From Golubevia sp. BC0850 (lineage: Eukaryota > Basidiomycota > Exobasidiomycetes > Golubeviales > Golubeviaceae), in the NCBI GenBank assembly GCA_012976225.1, contig JAAVVG010000025.1, forward strand, positions 186,001 to 250,000: DNA of 64,000 bases. Direction: 5' to 3'. Each line of letters opens with the position of its first letter. The stretch's first letter is position 1. The notes under the pieces are model-generated. The model saw only the letters and a list, made by a program, of their open reading frames with translations. It made no database searches and had not been told where the DNA came from. This document shows positions 1 through 19,927 of this stretch, in pieces. The position numbers and the translations under genes are program-made.

Positions 1-3000
1 GAACTACCCCAACCAACTCTAAGAGGTTTAATCGCCAGGCTCTATGAGAACTATCAAGGTGAAGGAACCTCCGAAGCCAGTAAGCGTTGGAACGAAGTTA
101 GAAAGGAGATCTTGGAAATGGCTGTGGAAAAGTTCTTGATCCCGAATGCTAAGAACTGGATCAAAGAATGGTTGAAGGAGGAGTGTACTGACGTCATCAC
201 AAAGAACGCAGAGACCAATCTCATCAGAAGAATCAACTGTGCTCCCTATCAATCTAAAAGCATGAAAGCCAGGTCCAAGCCAGACAGATCTACCAACGAA
301 CAAGGAGAAGATACCGAAGACGAAGACGAAGACGACGCCGACGACGCTAGAAAGGTTCCCAGAGTCTTAGCAGTCTCGCAAGGGAGTGGAGATACTCGTA
401 GAGGAGAGAACGTCATTTCGATTTTCTTAGATTCTCATTCTCGATTCCGTCATCATGCAGTCTATCCGCATCTTCGAGAAGCGGAGAAAGAAGAAGAAGA
501 GGAAGGTGAAGAATTTACGACCAGCATCAAAAGGAGAGAGCAAGTTCTAGATCCTAGAGCCGACTTCATAGCAATGGTTAAAGAAAGACGACCAGACGTC
601 ATCGTAGTCAACGGATTCAGTCACAAGACTGTCGCTTTAACTATGCAATTAAACGAAATCGCTCAGAAGGTGACTGCTGAGTTAATCGAAGACGCTGCAG
701 AGGACTCAACCGTCGAAGAACTTTCAGAAAGAACAAAGAACAAATTCAAGATCGATGTCATTCATTGTCATGACGATATTGCCAGACTCTATCAACACTC
801 AAGTAGAGCTGTCGAAGAGTTTCCTGAACTTTCAACTCTAGGTCGTTACTGTGTTGGTTTAGCAAGATACGTTCAATCTCCTCTACTAGAATTCGCATCT
901 TTAAAGCAAGATTTAACTACGATACTTTTGGATCCGAATCAAAGATTAGTCCCAGAAGATCGTTTACGAGAGATTCTAGAGCGCTCGATCGTCGCCTACG
1001 CTTGCGAAACCGGAGTCGATATCAATAGAGCTGTCTCTGATACGTATTACGCAAATCTCTTGCCATACGTTGCTGGACTTGGACCTCGTAAAGCGCATGC
1101 TTTAGTCAGAACCATCAACAGAGAATTAGATGGAACAGTCGTCAACAGAGCAGTCTTACTCGAGCTTCCTAAAGAAGATGAAGACGACGATTCCGAATCG
1201 AGATCGATTCTCCATTTCCACGTCTGGACGAATTGCATCTCTTTCTTAAGGATCGTGGGAGAGTACACGACAAGTGGAATAAAGCAAGGACCTTCAGATC
1301 CATTAGATTCGACTAGAATTCATCCAGAAGATTACGATTATCCAAGGAAAATGGCTTCTGATGCTTTGAATCTGGACGAAGAAGATCTCGCCGAGCAGCA
1401 TGCTTCCGCTCCTTGCAAAACTTTGATGGAAAGCTCTGAACCAGCCGACAAATTGAAGGCTCTGGATCTAGAACATTACGCCAACATGCTTTTCCAAATG
1501 AGAGGTCTTAGAAAGAGAAACACTCTTCAGATGTGTGCAAGAGAGCTAGCTGCTCCTTATCACGAGCTGAGAGCTGTCTTTTTGCTACCTACCGAAGACG
1601 ACATGTTAACGATGTTGACAGGTGAGACTTCAAAGACTCTAGATTACAATCTGGTCGTTCCTGTGACTGTTGTCGCAGTCGCTCCAACTCATCTAGTTGT
1701 CAGATTAGATAGTGGAATCGAAGGAACTATCAACGCTCAATACTTCGTCGAAGAGACCATTAGTTGGGGAGATCCAGGTGAGAAGAGAAAGTTAAGAGAT
1801 TACGCTTCGATCGGAAAGACCATGGACGCTCTGATTATCGACATGGACAAGAACTCTCTCAGAGTAGAGTTGACTGCTTTGAAAAAGCATTTGCAAGATA
1901 CTTCAGTCTCCAATTCGAACAGGACTCAAGTCGATCCGGTTTACTTCGATCAAGTCAAAGCTATGGCCGAAGCTTCTGAAGTCGAAGCCAAAGCAGCCAA
2001 AGCCAAGAACAGAACTGTCACTAGAAACATCAAGCATCCTGATTTCAAGAACTTCAAATCCGGTCAAGCTGAAGAATACCTAGCTGGTCAACCAAGAGGG
2101 AGTCTGGTCGTTAGACCTAGCTCAAAAGGAAACGATCATCTGGCTGTCACTTGGAAGATCGACGATGGAGTCTTTCAACATATCGGTGAGTGTTGCGAAT
2201 GAGAGAATGTGTCTAGCTTCTACGTTCTCTTGTCTCGATACTGACGAATCCACTCATCTTTTTCCTGCCTTCGTTACTTCTCTGTAGACGTTCTCGAACT
2301 CAACAAAGAGAATGACTACGCTCTTGGAAAGAGTCTTCGTATTGGTAACATGGGAACTTATTCTGATCTTGATGAGCTCATCGTCAATCACATCCAACCG
2401 ATGGCCAAGATGGTGGATATGATGATGCATCACGAAAAGTACCAGGGAGCTGATACGGACAAGCTCAGTGAGTTTTAGGGATGAAAATCCACCTAACCTA
2501 GGGAAGGACGAGAAGCCAATCTCTGATCATCGTTTTTTTCGCCTCTCGCCCTTTCCGCAGACACCTTCCTGAACACTTGGTGTGCTGCCAATCCTCGTCG
2601 CTCGATGTACGCTTTCGGTCTCGATCGAGAAAGACCTGGATACTTCAAGCTCTCCTTCAAGGCCAATCGTGAAGCGGTCATCGAGACTTGGCCAGTCAAG
2701 GTTCTACCTGGCTCTTTTAAGCTGAACAAAGCCGATCAACTTCCAGACGTCATGAGCTTGTGCAACTCCTTCAAAGCTCAGTACACAAGTTCGATGTTCG
2801 GAGCGGGAGGTCAAGATTCCACTCCCCACGGAGGAGGAAGGACTCCAGCTTTAGGAGGTAGAACTCCAGGTTACGGAGGAATGACTCCTAGCAGAACTCC
2901 AGGACATGGTGGAGTAACTCCTAGCAGAACTCCAGGACATGGTGGAATGACTCCAAATAGAACTCCAGGTCACATGAACACTCCAGGTTACGGTGGAATG

Positions 3001-3228
3001 TCAGGTCGTTACACTCCTCAAATCACTCCAAACGCCTATTCTGGTCAAAGTCCTTATGGTGGAGGTCAAACCCCTAACGCTTACGGTGGAACTCCAAACT
3101 ACGGTGGCGCTACACCTGGAAGAATGACACCTGGAAGAGCTCCTCCAGGACCTGCTCCCGGTCCCCCGCCCTCTAGGCCTCAGATTCATCCAGATAGAAT
3201 GGCTCAGATGAATTCTAGAGGATGGTAG
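1..3228 (+). CDS. SPT6: Transcription elongation factor SPT6 (5' end cut off by window)
   Basis: Histone chaperone that travels with elongating RNA polymerase II in the nucleus. The frame is open from the first base, so the N-terminus lies outside. Exons by splice phase: 1-2185, 2288-2467, 2561-3228 (sum divisible by 3, 1010 residues). Visible in order: YqgF-like core, helix-hairpin-helix (YVAGLGPRKAHAL), S1-like barrel (VVRLDSGIEGTI), and tandem SH2 with the phosphate-binding stretch RGSLVVRPSS just before intron 1. The tail is a Gly/Thr-Pro array (TPGHGGMTPSR-like units, about 16 TP dipeptides) ending MNSRGW. An acidic ED-rich insert lies near residues 100-115. Convergent with the Sec7 gene, 384 bp between stops. 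Identification is secure; only the missing start is uncertain. Confidence 0.95.
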
Positions 3229-3611
3229 TCTCTAGAGATTTCCGAATCGCTTCCCCCCTCCTTTATTGTCTTGTCTTTACCCTTTGTTTTTCTCTTTCCC
3301 TCCCGGCCTCGGCCAAAAAAAGTAAAAAAAATGTTTCTCGTTCCGGACTCAATTTGAAATGCACACCTGTCTTGTTTGTTTAAACTTCTCCAAATCTTGA
3401 TACATGAGCTTGAATGAAATCAAAACTGAAAACCTCAGTTTCCAACTGAATGCCTCGCCTGATCTCAGGCCAATTCTCGTAGCTGAAATTCAAGATTCCG
3501 AATATGCTAGGATTTGATTAAAATATGAAGAATTGAAAAAATACAAGAAATCGAAGGGTTCGTTCCGGGTCTTCATCACCATTGTCATTACGTCGTTAAA
3601 AGGTGTCCATT

Positions 3612-6600
3612 CTAACCCAACAAAGGACCACCTTCTTCATCCTGTCTGACTCTCGACATTTCTTCATCCGCTTGTTCCAAAAGAGCAGCTACCTCTCTTT
3701 TCCCTCTCTTCTCCGCTCTCATTCTAACAGCACCTTTCAGACTCTCAACATAGCACTGATACTTGACGAGTTCTTGTAATAAGTAATTTGATTTCCTTTC
3801 CCAATTTCCAAGAGCTTTGGCACCATTACTAGATTTTGGACCATAAAGACCCAACATAGGTTGTCTCAGATTGGTATGAGCTGTCAATTCCAATTCAATT
3901 CTAGTGACTTGAGAAATGCACCTATCCAATTGTTCTTCTTCCTTTAAAGTGCTTGCAACTGTTGGAGAGACTGGAGGTTTCCATTCGTTGATGTAAGTCC
4001 TTTCGTTGGCATGAGAAGATGGTCCGCTGCCAGACATGATTGAAGCTGAAGGACTGCTGATGACGCTTGAAGCTCCCAATCCTCCTCCTCCGTAGCCACC
4101 CATGATCGATCCGGTATCCTTGTTACTGGAACCGCTACCTCCTCCTGGAGTGACGAGAGAAGCTGCTTCATGCCAATTCTGGTAAAGGGCTGCTCCTCTG
4201 GCTCTCATCGAACGAGCGGAGGTTGACTTTCCACTTCGAATACTTCGAGTGTCTGAAGCTTTTGGTCCATGGGGAGTTGTCGGCATGTTGTAGATACTTC
4301 CATCTGGGGGAGAAGAGATTCCGGAAAGGACTGATTTGGTTTCTTCTCTCTCGTCCAAGAGATCTTCCGCTTCTTCATACTGGGAGGGCATAACTTTGTT
4401 CCATCCATACTCCATGTTGGAAACTCCAGCAGCTAGAGGTTCTCTACTCTGTCTAGCAGCCCAGTAGTTGCAAGTGGAGACCCACTCATGAACTAGATCT
4501 TCATGTCCAGCTTGGAAGAAGTAAACGGCTCCGCCCGGTAGAGTTAGAGCCAAGACGTGAGGTCTACTTCGGTTGTAACCAGGCGGCGGAAGAGCGTTAG
4601 CTAAAGCATGAGCAAGAGAGAAATTTCCGAGAGAGGTCGCACTAGACAGCCAGTTTCCACCACCGACTGGAGCGTTAGATCCAGCAGAAGCTTTAGAAGA
4701 AGACGTATCCGCTCCGAATCTGAACATCGAAAGAGTTCCCTTCTGAACGACGACAAAAACTTCGACCCAGGCCTTGTCCTTCCCTCTCTTCTGAGGAGCT
4801 TCCCAGTAGTGTTTCCTTGTGAGAACTCCTTCCTTAGCCCAAGGAGGACCCATCAGAGCAAGTTCGTCGTCATCGACTTCCTCAGGTTCAGAGCTGACGC
4901 TTCTGGCCAGATCCTCCTCTTGACTCTCCTTGATTATGGAATGCGAGAGAGTGTTTGCGAATCCAAGAGTTGGAGGATGAAGAGAACTTCCAGTCGAAGG
5001 GCTTGTAGATGCACTACCGGTCGTGTGGAAAGCCCAGCTGTCACCCAAAGATCGAGAACCAATGGAGCTGGAAGTTTGACTGAGAGCGTCTTCGCTTGCG
5101 AAAGAGCTGTTGCCGAGAAGACCTTGGATACCTCGAATACTACCTCTCTTGAGAGCTGAGACTCGATCAGATCCTGGACCACCAGATTTCGGCATTTTTC
5201 TCTGAGATGCGAGAGTTGGGCTGAGTAAACGGTCGCTGGAAGGTAGACGGATTTGATCACCCTTGACTGCGACGTAGATGTCCTGTAAGGAAGAAAAGAT
5301 TGAACAAAAGCAGGGTCAGTAGCTCGAACAGAGTTGAGATCCACCATCTCAAAAACGGTTCTCACCTTCAGCAGCATTTCGAGTTCAGCTTCCCAAGCTT
5401 TGGCTGTCGGTCCCACATTCTGTCTGGACCTGTCGATATCAATAGAAGCACTTGCATTCCTACCTCTTGTACCTGAATTGAATGTAGCACTTGGAGGAAG
5501 ACTTGCTTTACCAGGAGATTTGGTAGCTGAAAGAGAGGGCGAAGCTACATCATCGGTAGAAGCAGAGAAAGATCTTGAGCCGCCATTGACAGTAGAAGCA
5601 AGGTTTGGAGTTGATCCATTATTTCCACCACTAGAGATTGGATCTTTAGACATCGATCGATTGGTACGAATGCTTCCACTTCGAGTAGGTCTTGTCCTAT
5701 TTGAGAAAGTTCCACTGAGAGAAGGAGACATTGATCCAGTTTGATCATCATGATCGGTGACGTTGACGCTTAGATTGCTTCTAGAATCATCTCCAATTTG
5801 AGCTGATGAGGTGAAACTGTCCGCTAGCTTCTGATCTGAGATTGCAGACATGGTATTCTTGACGAATTGATTCCTAGTCATTCTCTCAGTGATATCAGCG
5901 ACGTGTAAATCCGTGTTGAGAAGGAGTAGAGAGAAGACAATGCTGTGAGCAATGTCTGCACTTCCATATATTGAATTGTGATTGCTTTTCCAGAAACATT
6001 GAGAGAAGGCGTTAAGAATTCTATCGATCTGTTGAGTTTCAGCTCTTAGAAAGAGCTTGTCACATAACTTTCGGAAAGCGGCGTCGATTCGTAGACCGGC
6101 AAAGTCGAAGTAAGAGAAGTAAATGAGAAGAGCTGCTTGATTGACTTTTCCACTGTTAGAACAAGAGAAAGAGCCTTTTCAGTATTTCGAAAATAGAATC
6201 AAACAGATTGCAAGGATACTCACATTCCACCCAACCATTCTGAAATCTTCTCTTTCTTCAAAAAGCTCTCATCCTCATTCCAACACTTCATTGCCAACTC
6301 TCTAGCTTCGTCAGAGGTAGACAGATCCTCTTCTGCCACCAAGTTGTCCATATCCACGACGCCAAGACTCGGCACTCTGGAGTTGATGTTGCTCGGAGGA
6401 CTTGTCTCACTAGCACGAGAAGCTCGTCTCTCCATTGGATGAAGCGGAACCGAAGTCGAACCACTGCTTCTTCCAGGACCAGGACTTGATTCTCTACTGA
6501 CTTCTCCACGTACCGAACTAGAGCTTGATCGAGGACCAGCACTGACATCCAGGGAGGCTTTTCTGAAACTTGGATTCGTATTCGAAGTTGATCTAGGAGC

Positions 6601-14664: not shown

Positions 14665-16025
14665 ATGCAAGCTTCTCGTTTCGCTTCCAAGGCAACAGCT
14701 TTAATAGCTTTGTTGACCTTGACGGTTCAAGCCGCCCCTCAAGTCAACTCTACTTCTTCCGAGACCACAATCAGCAGTCAAGAGAAACCTATAGGGATGT
14801 CTCAGACTGTCCTGATCGCTCATGTGGTGAGTCTCCGTGGCTCTGGCTCGTCTCCTTTTTCCAGTTCGACACTGAGCGTTGACACTAGAAACCTCTCCCG
14901 TCTCTCAAAGGTTTGCATGGGCCTTTCTTTCTTGGTATTCGCACCTTTCGGAGCCATACTAGCTCGTTATGGAAGAACGCTCTTTGCTTGGTCTTTCGTG
15001 CATCGAGTCTTCCAGTCGATTTGTGGACTGCTCGCAATTGTTGGTCTCGCGCTGTGAGTTTTCCGAATCTCTACCTTTCTCCTTCACTTTGCTTACCTTG
15101 GAATCGTCCTTCTCTCCTGATCAGTGGAATTGCCTACTCGAGTCTCTCGCCCACCTCCAAAGGTCTCTCTTCGTCACACGCCAGCGTTGGCCTCGGCCTC
15201 TTCATCATCTTGGTAATCCAATTTTTGTTAGGCTATGCCTCTCACATCTTCTTCAATTCTCAAGTTCTCAAGTACAGAGCCATCAACTTTGTTCATGCAG
15301 GACTGGGAATCACAATCATTGGTCTAAGCTTTTGGGACGTCATCCTCGGAGCCGAAGCTTGGTCGACAGCGAAGCCACATCTCAAAGTCATCAAGTACTC
15401 ACTTTTAGGATATGGTCTTTCGATTGTTCTTATCTACTGCTTAGGATTCCTACTCATTCCTAGAGAGCTCGAAAACAACAGATTGAACTACAATTCAGAG
15501 CACAAGATTCTCAAATATAAATTAGCTTCAGCTCCAGCCATGAATTCCGAGACTCATCTAAACCAAATCGAAAAGTACCAATCCAAGCTATCGATTCCCA
15601 AGCCACTCGAAGAGATCTGTGGTCCAGTCTCGCTTTTCTATCACAACACAGACCTAAAGCAAGTTGTCATTGAAGAAAGTGGTGAAAGTGGAGATGAGAA
15701 TCAAAGAGCTTCAGTCTTCGAAGATGACGACGAAGATGACGAGAAAAGCATGAAAGAAATCAGGAATTCAATCTCCAGTAGGAAGGAAAAGAAGAGGAAG
15801 TCTAAGGATTTGAAGAGGGCTAACAAGTCCTTTGAGCTGGTTAGGAAGAATGGCTACAAGGAAAGCACAAGCCAGGGGAAGAAAAGCCCACATGAATTCG
15901 AAAGCACTTCTGCCATCTCAGCTTCTACTTCTCTGAACGAATCGACTTTTCTGGGAGGGTTAGATGGTCAGGATGAATTGGAAGATGAATTCAATGAAAT
16001 CAGGTTCTCTGGGGTGGCGCTGTAA
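14665..16025 (+). CDS. Cytochrome b561 family transmembrane protein with signal peptide
   Basis: Predicted bis-heme trans-membrane electron carrier (ascorbate- or NADPH-linked ferric reductase type) of the plasma or vacuolar membrane. Exons: 14665-14826, 14911-15053, 15125-16025 (sum divisible by 3, 401 residues). An N-terminal signal peptide (ALIALLTLTVQAAP) precedes a helix bundle. Four histidines fit the two heme ligand pairs: IAHVV, FVHRVFQ, SSSHASVG and NFVHAGLG. FLVFAPFGAILAR is the typical helix-2 block. The C-terminal 140 residues are hydrophilic and acidic (DDDEDDEK) and probably cytosolic. There is no DOMON domain, so it is a stand-alone b561. Function inferred from family. Confidence 0.82.
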
Positions 16026-17289: not shown

Positions 17290-18413
17290 ATGCAAGCCAA
17301 AATCGCCATCTCTCTCGCCTTCGCTTCAAGCTTATTGGTCGCCGCAGCTCCAGCTCCAACTTCTGTAAGTTGCCGTAGGACTATCGGAGGACTGCTCTTT
17401 GTTCGGTCTGATCTTTTTCATTTCTGCTTTTCTCACCAACACAGGAGAAAGAACTCTTCACCTTTGATCTGCCAAAGCAGCACTCTTCTTCTCCTTCAGA
17501 CCCTTTTATCCTCGGATACAAGGGAAGAGACGTCCAATTCAAAGTAGGTCCAAATTTCTTTCTTTTGATCTGGCCATTTCACCGACTGACATGACCTCTT
17601 TGATCTCCATCTGGTTCATAGGACAAACGCGAGGCAGTCAACATCCTTCATCCAGTTCATCCATCAAACTCCTGGACCAGTCCTTACACTTTCGGTTTCA
17701 AAGGTAGAGATGCTGATTCTGTGGTAAGTTTCTAGGCTTCAACCTTCTGTCACCAGCAGGGGAGCAACGAGCAAAGAGCAACTAGCACAACCGATCTCGT
17801 CGACCGTTCTCTGACCCGGCATTGCCACCTTCACCACATCTTCTCCACCAGCAGTCCAACGAAGCTCGTGGATTCGCAGACTACGGATCTCTAATCTCAG
17901 CTATCATCAATGGCTTCAACGCCATTAGATCTTCAAGCAAAGAAGCAGAAGACTTTCTAAGCTCCGATGAAGGAAAAGAATTCGTTTCCAAACTCGCTTC
18001 GATTCAAGCCAGAGATCTAGTTGAAGAACGCGGGGCAGCTGATTATGGAAGTTTGATCTCAGCCATCATTAACGGGTTTAATGCTATCAGAACAAAGGCC
18101 ACTAGAGATTTGAATGAGAATGAAAGACTTGCTAGAGATCTAATCGAAGAACGTGGATTCGCTGACTACGGTTCATTGATCTCAGCAATCATCAATGGAT
18201 TCAATGCTATTAGAACTAGAGCGGCCAGAGATCTAGGAGATGAAGTGGTGAGTTCATGCCATCGTTTGGAGAAGTCCAAGATGATCTGAGAAGTTTTCTT
18301 ACCTCTCCATTCTTTCCTTGCCTCAGGAAATGCATCAAAGGGATGCATTCGACCCATCAACTTTGATGATGTTATTAGGAGCTCGTGATGAGGATTCTGA
18401 TTTGTTGGGATGA
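17290..18413 (+). CDS. Secreted repeat-peptide precursor with three identical 18-residue repeats
   Basis: I recognise no named family. Five exons fit in phase: 17290-17364, 17445-17543, 17622-17723, 17852-18247, 18327-18413 (252 residues; exon 4 could start at 17855, removing one Gln). Residues 1-20 are a clear signal peptide (LAFASSLLVAAAPAP). A single Lys-Arg lies at 60-61. Three copies of ADYGSLISAIINGFNAIR sit at about 101-118, 155-172 and 196-213, each preceded by R-G-F or R-G-A. The spacers share ARDL(V/I)EERG, and the dipeptide RD occurs eight times, so processing at Arg seems likely. The repeat is an amphipathic, Ile/Leu-rich helix candidate. The architecture resembles fungal secreted precursors cut into repeat peptides (Ustilago Rep1, Candida Ece1), but sequence similarity to them is not claimed. 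No CAAX box, so not a lipopeptide pheromone. Confidence 0.75.
17876..17929 (+). repeat. Peptide repeat copy 1
   Basis: Encodes ADYGSLISAIINGFNAIR. It differs from copy 2 at 13 of 18 codons and from copy 3 at 8 of 18, all synonymous. Confidence 0.9.
18038..18091 (+). repeat. Peptide repeat copy 2
   Basis: Same 18 residues as copies 1 and 3, with 10 of 18 codons different from copy 3. It is preceded by EERGA where the others have RGF. Confidence 0.9.
18161..18214 (+). repeat. Peptide repeat copy 3
   Basis: Same 18 residues, preceded by EERGF and followed by TRAARDL. Spacing from copy 2 (123 nt) is shorter than from copy 1 to copy 2 (162 nt). Confidence 0.9.
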
Positions 18414-19151: not shown

Positions 19152-19631
19152 TCACCAAAGCTTCCACCAACTCTTCCCACTGCTTGTCTCCTCGACCTTC
19201 CCTTCATCTGCAACGACCTGTTCCCTCATCTTCAAAATCTTCTCCCTACTCTCCTTCACAACTTTCTGCAATCCATCAATCTCTTGCTCTCTTTCCTGTT
19301 TGATTTCTCCATCCTTCAAGACAGTCCAAGTGAGGTGTAAGGCGAAGTAAGAAGCACTTCCATAAGCCAGAACTCTTAAGAAAGGAGGTAGAATATCAGA
19401 GTAGAAAGATTTATGTCTTGCTGAAGCTGAATTTGGGTCTACTGGAGTTGGATTGATTGGCTTGGGTTGCTTTGGTGGAGGAGGAGAGAAATAGGATGAG
19501 GATGGAGAAGAGGAGGAGGATGAAGGTTGAGGTTGCGAGTTTGAGTTTAGGATGGAACGACTCGTTGAGATTAATCGAATCGTTTCAAAACTTCGTTGGT
19601 TGAATGAAAAAGTTGGAATTCTGGCAAGCAT
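19152..19631 (-). CDS. Small mitochondrial single-pass protein of unknown function
   Basis: One uninterrupted frame of 159 residues starting at MLARIPTFSF. The N-terminus is rich in Arg, Ser and Phe and lacks acidic residues, a typical mitochondrial presequence. A Ser/Pro-rich linker (residues 35-70) is followed by a hydrophobic segment (FLRVLAYGSASYFALHLTW) that could span the inner membrane, then a charged helix (EIDGLQKVVKESREKILKMREQ) with coiled-coil potential, ending SWWKLW. I do not recognise the family. It diverges from the F-box fragment about 300 bp away. Confidence 0.65.
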   Translation of the reverse strand: MLARIPTFSFNQRSFETIRLISTSRSILNSNSQPQPSSSSSSPSSSYFSPPPPKQPKPINPTPVDPNSASARHKSFYSDILPPFLRVLAYGSASYFALHLTWTVLKDGEIKQEREQEIDGLQKVVKESREKILKMREQVVADEGKVEETSSGKSWWKLW

Positions 19632-19927
19632 TTTCAAACCTCAAACAGTGTTGATGATGTCGATGAGTTTGGCGTACGCGTATAGGAGCGGTCTCTCTTC
19701 GAGCCCTTTCAATTTTCAAATCGATTCGTTCTGTTTGGATCTCTTCTATTTTATCTGAGACCTCAAATCCAGGTGATTGTATGCTTCCTATTGGGTCGAA
19801 TAGACTACCTTTGCCGTTGCTGACTCCACTTATCTGGCTCTATCCTTCCGGTTTCCTCCCTCTCCTTCTTCCCACTCACCAACAATCCCGAGAAGATTCA
19901 ATCTGACAACACCCAGTGATTCCAACA

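What the first reader, a model, noticed from the sequence alone, without database searches (positions are those of the whole stretch)
17290..18413. Undescribed secreted precursor carrying three identical amphipathic peptides
The predicted 252-residue protein has a signal peptide and three copies of ADYGSLISAIINGFNAIR. The copies are identical in protein but differ at 13, 10 and 8 of 18 codons pairwise, so the duplication is old and the peptide is held by purifying selection (seen directly). Architecture matches fungal repeat-peptide precursors such as Rep1 and Ece1 (known), but the peptide is not one I recognise. It may be released and act at membranes or surfaces (inference).
Basis: partly seen in the sequence, partly recalled or inferred. 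Interest (0 to 1): 0.85.

Follow-up and report, generated by a model that had tools for sequence, protein, structure and literature searches.

The report
Fungal secreted peptide-precursor family member
A fungal gene predicts a secreted protein that carries three copies of one short water-avoiding peptide, and it turns out to be one of about two dozen related genes in the same genome that look like precursors of diverse secreted peptides.

Summary
Five phase-0 exons (17290-18413) give a 251-residue protein (not 252) with a signal-peptide-like start and three identical copies of ADYGSLISAIINGFNAIR, differing at 13, 10 and 8 of 18 codons. At least 19 substitutions separate the copies; none changes the protein.

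Many predict precursors with Lys-Arg sites. A recurring module joins a variable hydrophobic head to a more conserved tail, KEAxxFLxxxEGxxFxSKLA...R|D. The 18-mer belongs to a 20-residue core, clear in nine copies in five genes, with Arg at both ends and no indels.

The gene has one KR, none beside its repeats, so it fails the published KEP rule. Best reading: a proprotein-convertase-processed precursor, perhaps cut at single Arg, whose peptides act at surfaces or membranes. Release and activity are inferred; amphipathicity is weak. Such precursors are known in fungi; this family, its head-tail module and its single-Arg borders appear new in the libraries and paper listings searched.

The parts
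17290..17364 (+). exon 1: signal-peptide-like N-terminus MQAKIAISLAFASSLLVAAAPAPTS
   Evidence: hydropathy only; no signal-peptide predictor; several paralogue models start alike, e.g. MQVTKIALSLAFVSSLSLVSAAP in L036
17445..17543 (+). exon 2
   Evidence: borders by splice consensus only; gene finder disagreed
17496..17531 (+). first copy of a second degenerate motif, SDPFILGYKGRD
17622..17723 (+). exon 3
   Evidence: weak likeness to paralogue L016 SPPSFGFHGQEKR; gene finder disagreed
17625..17630 (+). the only Lys-Arg (classical Kex2) site of the protein, residues 60-61
   Evidence: no RR or KK either
17676..17711 (+). second copy of the degenerate motif, TSPYTFGFKGRD
17855..18247 (+). exon 4: carries all three cores and the family tail
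17870..17929 (+). core 1, R|GFADYGSLISAIINGFNAIR (18-mer 17876-17929)
17936..18013 (+). conserved family tail SKEAEDFLSSDEGKEFVSKLASIQAR, ending at an Arg that is invariant in 15 aligned tails
   Evidence: (most paralogue matches lie here), alignment A1
18014..18031 (+). acidic spacer DLVEER
   Evidence: occupies the place of D...EKR spacers of paralogues
18032..18091 (+). core 2, R|GAADYGSLISAIINGFNAIR (18-mer 18038-18091)
18137..18154 (+). acidic spacer DLIEER
18155..18214 (+). core 3, R|GFADYGSLISAIINGFNAIR (18-mer 18161-18214)
18327..18413 (+). exon 5: C-terminus ending DEDSDLLG, like DxFDLLG ends of paralogues

Best explanation
The gene encodes a secreted prepropeptide of an expanded family of multi-peptide precursors. 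Shown: the open spliced frame, the three conserved cores, the paralogous family, the head-tail module, Lys-Arg sites in many paralogue models, Arg at both ends of nine clear DYG cores, and one kexin-like gene in the genome. Inferred: after signal-peptide removal the kexin or a monobasic-specific protease (for example a yapsin) cuts after the bordering Arg residues, releasing 20-residue G...R peptides (one perhaps as a ~48-residue core-plus-tail form). A Kex1-type carboxypeptidase may then trim the terminal Arg. The neutral, mostly hydrophobic, probably helical peptides act outside the cell at an interface: most likely as wall or surface coat peptides like smut repellents, otherwise as membrane-active agents against competitors.
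For: Three identical 18-mers with saturated silent divergence. Nine clear homologous 20-residue cores in five precursors, no length change, dN below dS in 35 of 36 pairs, many dS being saturated (the exception is the near-identical pair inside L036, with one nonsynonymous and no silent change). Twenty-four loci at E <= 0.01. Paralogue models with signal-like starts and several KR-delimited fragments. In 15 aligned tails the Arg is invariant while the residue before it is Lys in 7 and another residue in 8, so one homologous site occurs in dibasic and monobasic form. Products ending after single Arg are reported for basidiomycete KEPs expressed in P. pastoris (PMC9769878, passages). The one kexin found matches yeast Kex2 structures at E 2e-119.
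Against: The gene has a single KR, away from the repeats, and the kexin aligns closely to the yeast enzyme, which prefers dibasic sites (the preference and pocket residues are recalled, not tested), so cleavage at its single Arg sites is unproven. No transcript or peptide data. Helical amphipathicity is weak. AlphaFold models are low confidence (pLDDT 49.8 and 56.3). A possible tenth, degenerate core in L038 (GFLNAIR) seems to lack the DY motif, has an extra residue and an upstream EKR across a presumed intron, so Arg borders without Lys may not hold throughout. The surface role rests on analogy.
Confidence: 0.62

Rival explanations
1. The protein is secreted but not cut at the single Arg sites; the three helices are repeats of an intact structural or cell-wall protein, and KR sites were lost here as it changed role.
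For: Only one KR and two KR/RR fragments in the protein; the Arg at the core end is followed by varied residues (SSS, TKA, TRA).
Against: Arg borders and 20-residue spacing are kept in the nine clear cores, including precursors that otherwise use KR (the extraction pattern asked for Arg, see full report); acidic spacers DLVEER and DLIEER take the place of paralogues' D...EKR spacers.
Confidence: 0.2
2. The family are antagonistic membrane-active peptides (bacteriocin- or killer-like) diversified against microbial competitors.
For: Heads are hydrophobic, Gly/Ala-rich and more variable than the tails (mean best-of-three-register identity 0.24 against 0.46 over 325 pairs, 0.25 against 0.42 with one module per gene, tails being favoured by the way modules were picked); large gene number.
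Against: The DYG core is under strong constraint, not diversifying; net charge is 0 to +1 for the DYG cores tested, unlike most antimicrobial peptides (recalled).
Confidence: 0.25
3. The peptides are modified (for example cyclised) RiPPs of the dikaritin type, as the conserved Tyr might suggest.
For: Tyr is invariant in the nine clear cores.
Against: No UstYa-domain match in the genome, though the control genomes gave no positive either and the search reads exon by exon, so absence is not proven; the core is a 20-residue hydrophobic stretch.
Confidence: 0.05
4. Artefact: the reading frame is chance and there is no such gene.
For: No transcript evidence; exons 2-3 weakly supported.
Against: All-silent divergence, two amino-acid differences in 144 aligned residues of a metagenome relative, none in the cores, and a genome-wide family.
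Confidence: 0.02

Closest known systems
Kex2-processed repeat proteins (KEPs), Le Marquer 2019 (PMC6339444) and Umemura 2020 (PMC7329392), passages seen
   Same: Signal-peptide-like start and repeated peptide cores; several paralogues have many KR sites.
   Different: This gene has one KR and gives two fragments, below the published rule of four; its cores are bordered by single Arg; paralogues share a tail with more variable heads, and the family holds 24 loci at E <= 0.01.
Rep1 repellent of Ustilago maydis (described in PMC4617103, passages seen)
   Same: Secreted precursor of several peptides; the head-plus-tail unit of paralogues (about 45-50 residues) is near Rep1's repeats of 34-55.
   Different: Rep1 has 12 imperfect repeats split by Kex2 sites; here three identical 18-mers without KR between them. 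Sequence homology was not tested (Rep1 sequence not at hand).
Ece1 of Candida albicans (PMC5784256, passages seen)
   Same: Multi-peptide secreted precursor of similar size (271 aa); its Kex2-then-Kex1 logic is a plausible model.
   Different: Ece1 has seven KR motifs; this gene has one. No homology tested or claimed.
Dikaritin/ustiloxin RiPP precursors (features partly recalled)
   Same: Secreted repeat precursors, often with Tyr in the core.
   Different: No UstYa match in this genome (inconclusive); the cores here are longer and hydrophobic (recalled comparison).

Membership tests
KEP | ER signal peptide | tested here: inconclusive
   Hydropathy and like starts in paralogue models fit; no signal-peptide predictor on hand
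KEP | at least four fragments when cut at KR/RR, or else at KK (Le Marquer pipeline, passage) | tested here: not met
   1 KR, no RR, no KK, 2 fragments. Of 28 models 12 give four or more fragments, all paralogues; two of the 12 (L033, L042) come from places weaker than E 0.01 and one (L024) is an overlong model
KEP | at least three similar repeats | tested here: met
   three identical 18-mers, though not between KR sites
Rep1-type repellent | amphipathic repeats separated by Kex2 sites | tested here: not met
   amphipathicity weak; no KR between repeats
Rep1-type repellent | forms surface-active amyloid-like fibrils on hyphae | not testable with these tools
   needs wet-lab work
Rep1-type repellent | sequence homology to Rep1 | not tested
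   Rep1 sequence not at hand; Pfam gave no family for this protein at E <= 5
Ece1-type precursor | peptides separated by KR motifs | tested here: not met
Dikaritin RiPP | UstYa-domain protein in the genome or cluster | tested here: inconclusive
   0 matches in own genome, no positive control
the paralogous family described here | tail KEAxxFLxxxEGxxFxSKLA..xR|D | tested here: met
the paralogous family described here | DYG core of 20 residues bordered by Arg, with DLLG C-terminus | tested here: met
   DLLG ends also in the L019, L028, L029, L035, L036 and L043 models, of which L028 and L029 show no DYG core

The most novel reading that the evidence does not exclude
A fungal genome runs a modular peptide arsenal: about two dozen secreted precursors assembled from a conserved tail helix joined to diverging hydrophobic heads, comparable in logic to animal venom precursors with a fixed pro-region and variable cargo (comparison recalled). 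One branch has moved from dibasic to conserved single-Arg release sites, which makes it invisible to KR-based surveys.
Probability: 0.35. Interest if true: 0.7.

Novelty: new variant of a known kind. Interest (0 to 1): 0.5.

Why it matters
Published surveys find fungal peptide precursors by KR/RR sites between repeats. Here one family shows a homologous site in both dibasic and single-Arg form, so such surveys may undercount. The 24 loci exceed the top per-strain type listed by Umemura 2020 (18.5 KEPs per strain; passage), though that survey used a stricter rule, which I did not apply in full. The conserved-tail, variable-head design gives a direct way to test what such peptides do.

Tried and rejected
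Tried without result: the first homologue search with the whole protein found only one metagenome fragment. Pfam found no family in the protein and only sub-cut-off matches in 6 of 8 family fragments. NCBIfam gave NF008255 at E 5e-7, but 29.8 bits against a cut-off of 184. The match recurs on P0001 and exon 4, around core 1 only, and not in L019, P0003 or P0005; I take it as spurious, unproven. The PDB profile search gave two weak hits, E 0.013 and 0.024. The 5.8S rRNA search to place the organism found nothing, so species and phylum are not established; 'fungus' rests on intron style and the kexin match. AlphaFold models were too poor to search by fold, and no fold search was run. Considered and rejected: recent gene conversion as the cause of identity (silent sites are saturated); chance frame.

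Limits and corrections: paralogue models come from a home-made gene finder; several are fragmentary or fused (L023; L024), so counts from them are rough. The P2 count (25 sites) required an Arg by its own pattern, so I quote alignment A1 instead, whose 15 members I chose and trimmed by hand. The first head-against-tail comparison gave tails the best of three registers and heads only one; I redid it under one rule for both and quote that. The modules were picked by tail residues, which still favours the tails. Four fetched places weaker than E 0.01 are left out of the 24 (C8:64.7k, C10:449.8k, C11:274k, C12:213.5k); C8:52.0k and C58:8.0k (E 0.07 and 0.44) were not fetched. Several searches fed the list and the E-values are not corrected for that. 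No shuffled-query control was run.

Full report
Observation. The five exons at 17290-18413 splice in phase 0 to a 251-residue protein. Three copies of ADYGSLISAIINGFNAIR start at residues 100, 154 and 195. Their DNA differs at 13, 8 and 10 of 18 codons (copies 1-2, 1-3 and 2-3) with no protein change. The copies show 17 variable sites and need at least 19 substitutions; a single random substitution would be silent with probability 0.26, so all 19 silent has a chance near 1e-11. That model treats substitutions as independent and takes one copy as ancestor, so the figure is an order of magnitude. Recent gene conversion is made unlikely by the silent divergence. A metagenome fragment (P0001) matches exon 4 at 98% and differs at 2 of 144 aligned residues, neither in a core; the 144 run a little past the exon into the intron.

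Weak points of the gene model. Introns 1-3 have good donors, acceptors and branch-like sites; intron 4 has no branch match by my simple rule. Exons 2 and 3 have near-zero codon scores, and my gene finder preferred shorter exons there. No transcript evidence was available.

The family. The window lies in an unnamed 25.77-Mb genome of 64 contigs. Searching it with the whole protein gave 24 places: 5 are this gene's own exons and 19 lie at 13 other loci (E up to 0.26), mostly matching residues 104-171, the stretch from core 1 on. Single-protein searches with paralogue pieces and with four joined metagenome fragments raise this to 24 loci at E <= 0.01, this gene included: C3:733k, C4:143k, C6:104k, C7:414k and 445k, C8:490k and 587k, C12:371k, 539k and 550k, C17:10.8k, 68k, 106-107k (probably two genes) and 204k (this gene), C18:335k, C55:1055k and 1081k, C61:144k, 170k, 443k, 721k, 809k, 878k and 1011k. 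The E-values are the tool's own for one genome and one query; no shuffled-query control was run. Spliced models often start like MQVTKIALSLAFVSSLSLVSAAP. Of 28 models 12 give four or more fragments when cut at KR/RR; two of these 12 come from weaker places and one is overlong. In the fullest, C61:721k (L036), several KR|L-headed units follow one another.

The module. The unit is a hydrophobic, Gly/Ala-rich head of about 20 residues, then a tail such as SKEAADEFLATDQGKEFASKLASVESR|D, then an acidic spacer to the next KR. Of 30 tail-like places found by pattern in the 28 models, 27 carry SK[LMFA] and 26 of these have enough sequence on both sides. Their mean identity over 20 residues, best of three registers for both parts, is 0.24 for heads and 0.46 for tails (325 pairs; tail above head in 270); in a single fixed register it is 0.21 and 0.36. 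With one module per gene (18 genes, 153 pairs) it is 0.25 and 0.42. The pattern asks for tail residues, so tails are favoured. In 15 hand-trimmed tails the Arg is invariant, the residue after it is Asp in 12, and the residue before it is Lys in only 7. In the gene under study core 1 takes the place of a head and is followed by the tail; cores 2 and 3 lack the tail.

The core. The 18-mer sits in a 20-residue unit seen clearly nine times in five precursors: three times here, twice each in L036 and L043, once each in L035 and L019. All nine have the same length, begin with Gly after Arg and end with Arg; Gly1, Asp4, Tyr5, Ile12, Phe16, Asn17 and Arg20 are invariant. The left border is Ala-Arg or Glu-Arg in these nine. 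The extraction pattern asked for Arg borders. The places that cover the core all fall in these five genes, whose surroundings I read. The two L043 cores cross introns and were spliced by hand in a script. A possible tenth, degenerate core lies in L038 (C61:443k): AITVGFLNAIR then KTRD, with AEKRSTTHIWL upstream across a presumed intron. It lacks D-Y, has an extra residue before the Asn, and would have Lys-Arg on the left; it is not counted and its splicing is unresolved. Of 36 pairs among the nine, 35 have dN below dS (many dS saturated); the exception is the near-identical pair in L036. Purifying selection thus reaches beyond this one gene, but repeat number is not conserved.

Processing. The protein has one KR, at residues 60-61, no RR or KK, and gives two fragments, below the published KEP rule of four fragments with at least three alike (PMC6339444, pipeline passages). 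One kexin (PF01483) was found, on C5; its catalytic part matches Kex2 structures at E 2e-119. Cleavage at single Arg is plausible but unproven. Several products of Coprinopsis KEPs expressed in Pichia appear to end after single Arg, which the authors say possibly indicates monobasic cutting by Kex2 in vivo (PMC9769878, passages). Kex2 sites with other P2 residues are noted in PMC2515848 (passage), where monobasic-specific yapsin appears in the reference list. Kex1 trimming of a terminal Arg follows the Ece1 precedent (PMC5784256, passages).

Function. Whole-18-mer helical moment is unremarkable (0.29, shuffle p 0.27), as it is for four paralogue cores (p 0.31-0.52). The inner SLISAIINGFNAI gives 0.49, p 0.004, but was chosen afterwards. 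Net charge is 0 (paralogue cores +1). AlphaFold calls the cores and tails helical at low confidence (pLDDT 49.8 for exon 4; 56.3 for a head-tail unit). I prefer action at an interface. Rep1 of U. maydis is the best functional analogue: its Kex2-cut peptides form amyloid-like fibrils on hyphae, aid attachment to hydrophobic surfaces and help form aerial hyphae (PMC4617103, passages; PMC7409079, passages). Antagonistic membrane peptides remain a serious rival: deletion of Coprinopsis KEP genes gave no detectable phenotype and its authors suggest a role towards the biotic environment (PMC9769878 abstract). Cyclic dikaritins are unlikely: no UstYa match, though without a positive control.

Is it known? 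The top rows of six searches of the held papers (20 of 104, 12 of 26, 12 of 27, 12 of 327, 10 of 21 and 3 of 3 papers shown) listed no paper whose title or abstract start describes this family; of these papers I saw passages of seven, and the abstract of one of the seven in full. Pfam has no match over its cut-off for this protein or for eight family fragments. Protein-database hits were unnamed metagenome fragments. Seven of the 15 (P0002, P0003, P0009, P0012-P0015) are exact, first residue apart, in loci held here, so they come from this or a near-identical fungus. P0004, P0007, P0008 and P0010 are not; run as one joined query they matched this genome at 40-79% in all 31 places listed, so a related but different fungus seems to carry the family as well. 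P0011 carries a Pfam label (PF12732) and E 0.42 and is taken as unrelated.

Verdict. It is a new variant of a known kind rather than a new kind.

Noticed in passing
L033 (C10:447500-452000), model at 2319-3474: A separate neat precursor with two near-identical units RR|[IV]IINGK[DE]RPYKPISKPAAAVIKWLLSTYNKKNPKR|D and a similar signal-like start; kinship to the family is weak (E 0.3).
   Followed up: partly
L036 (C61:718500-725000), about 4200-4840: A recent near-identical duplication of roughly 90 residues with core, KR and second head inside one precursor; the two cores differ by one residue.
   Followed up: partly
L028 and L029 (C55:1055k and 1081k): Two precursors about 26 kb apart with near-identical middle modules, a recent nearby gene duplication.
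   Followed up: no
L035, L036 and L043 DYG cores: A phase-1 intron splits both L043 cores and apparently those of L035 and L036, but not those of this gene or L019, so introns were lost or gained within the peptide.
   Followed up: partly
L038 (C61:441500-445500), - strand, about 1803-2391: A possible tenth, degenerate core (AITVGFLNAIR) with EKR upstream across a presumed intron, next to a KR-headed unit.
   Followed up: partly
window 14889-16025 and 19152-19640: Neighbours are a frame weakly like cytochrome b561 (below cut-off) on the + strand and one without a Pfam match on the - strand; no second family member was listed elsewhere in the window.
   Followed up: partly
window 27701-52130: Ordinary genes by Pfam: FAD oxidoreductase, alcohol acetyltransferase-like, GH71, GTP cyclohydrolase I, SMC hinge, RF-1 release-factor domain.
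   Followed up: partly
window 17855-18247: NCBIfam NF008255 matches around core 1 at E 5e-7 but far under its cut-off (29.8 of 184 bits); unexplained, probably chance.
   Followed up: partly
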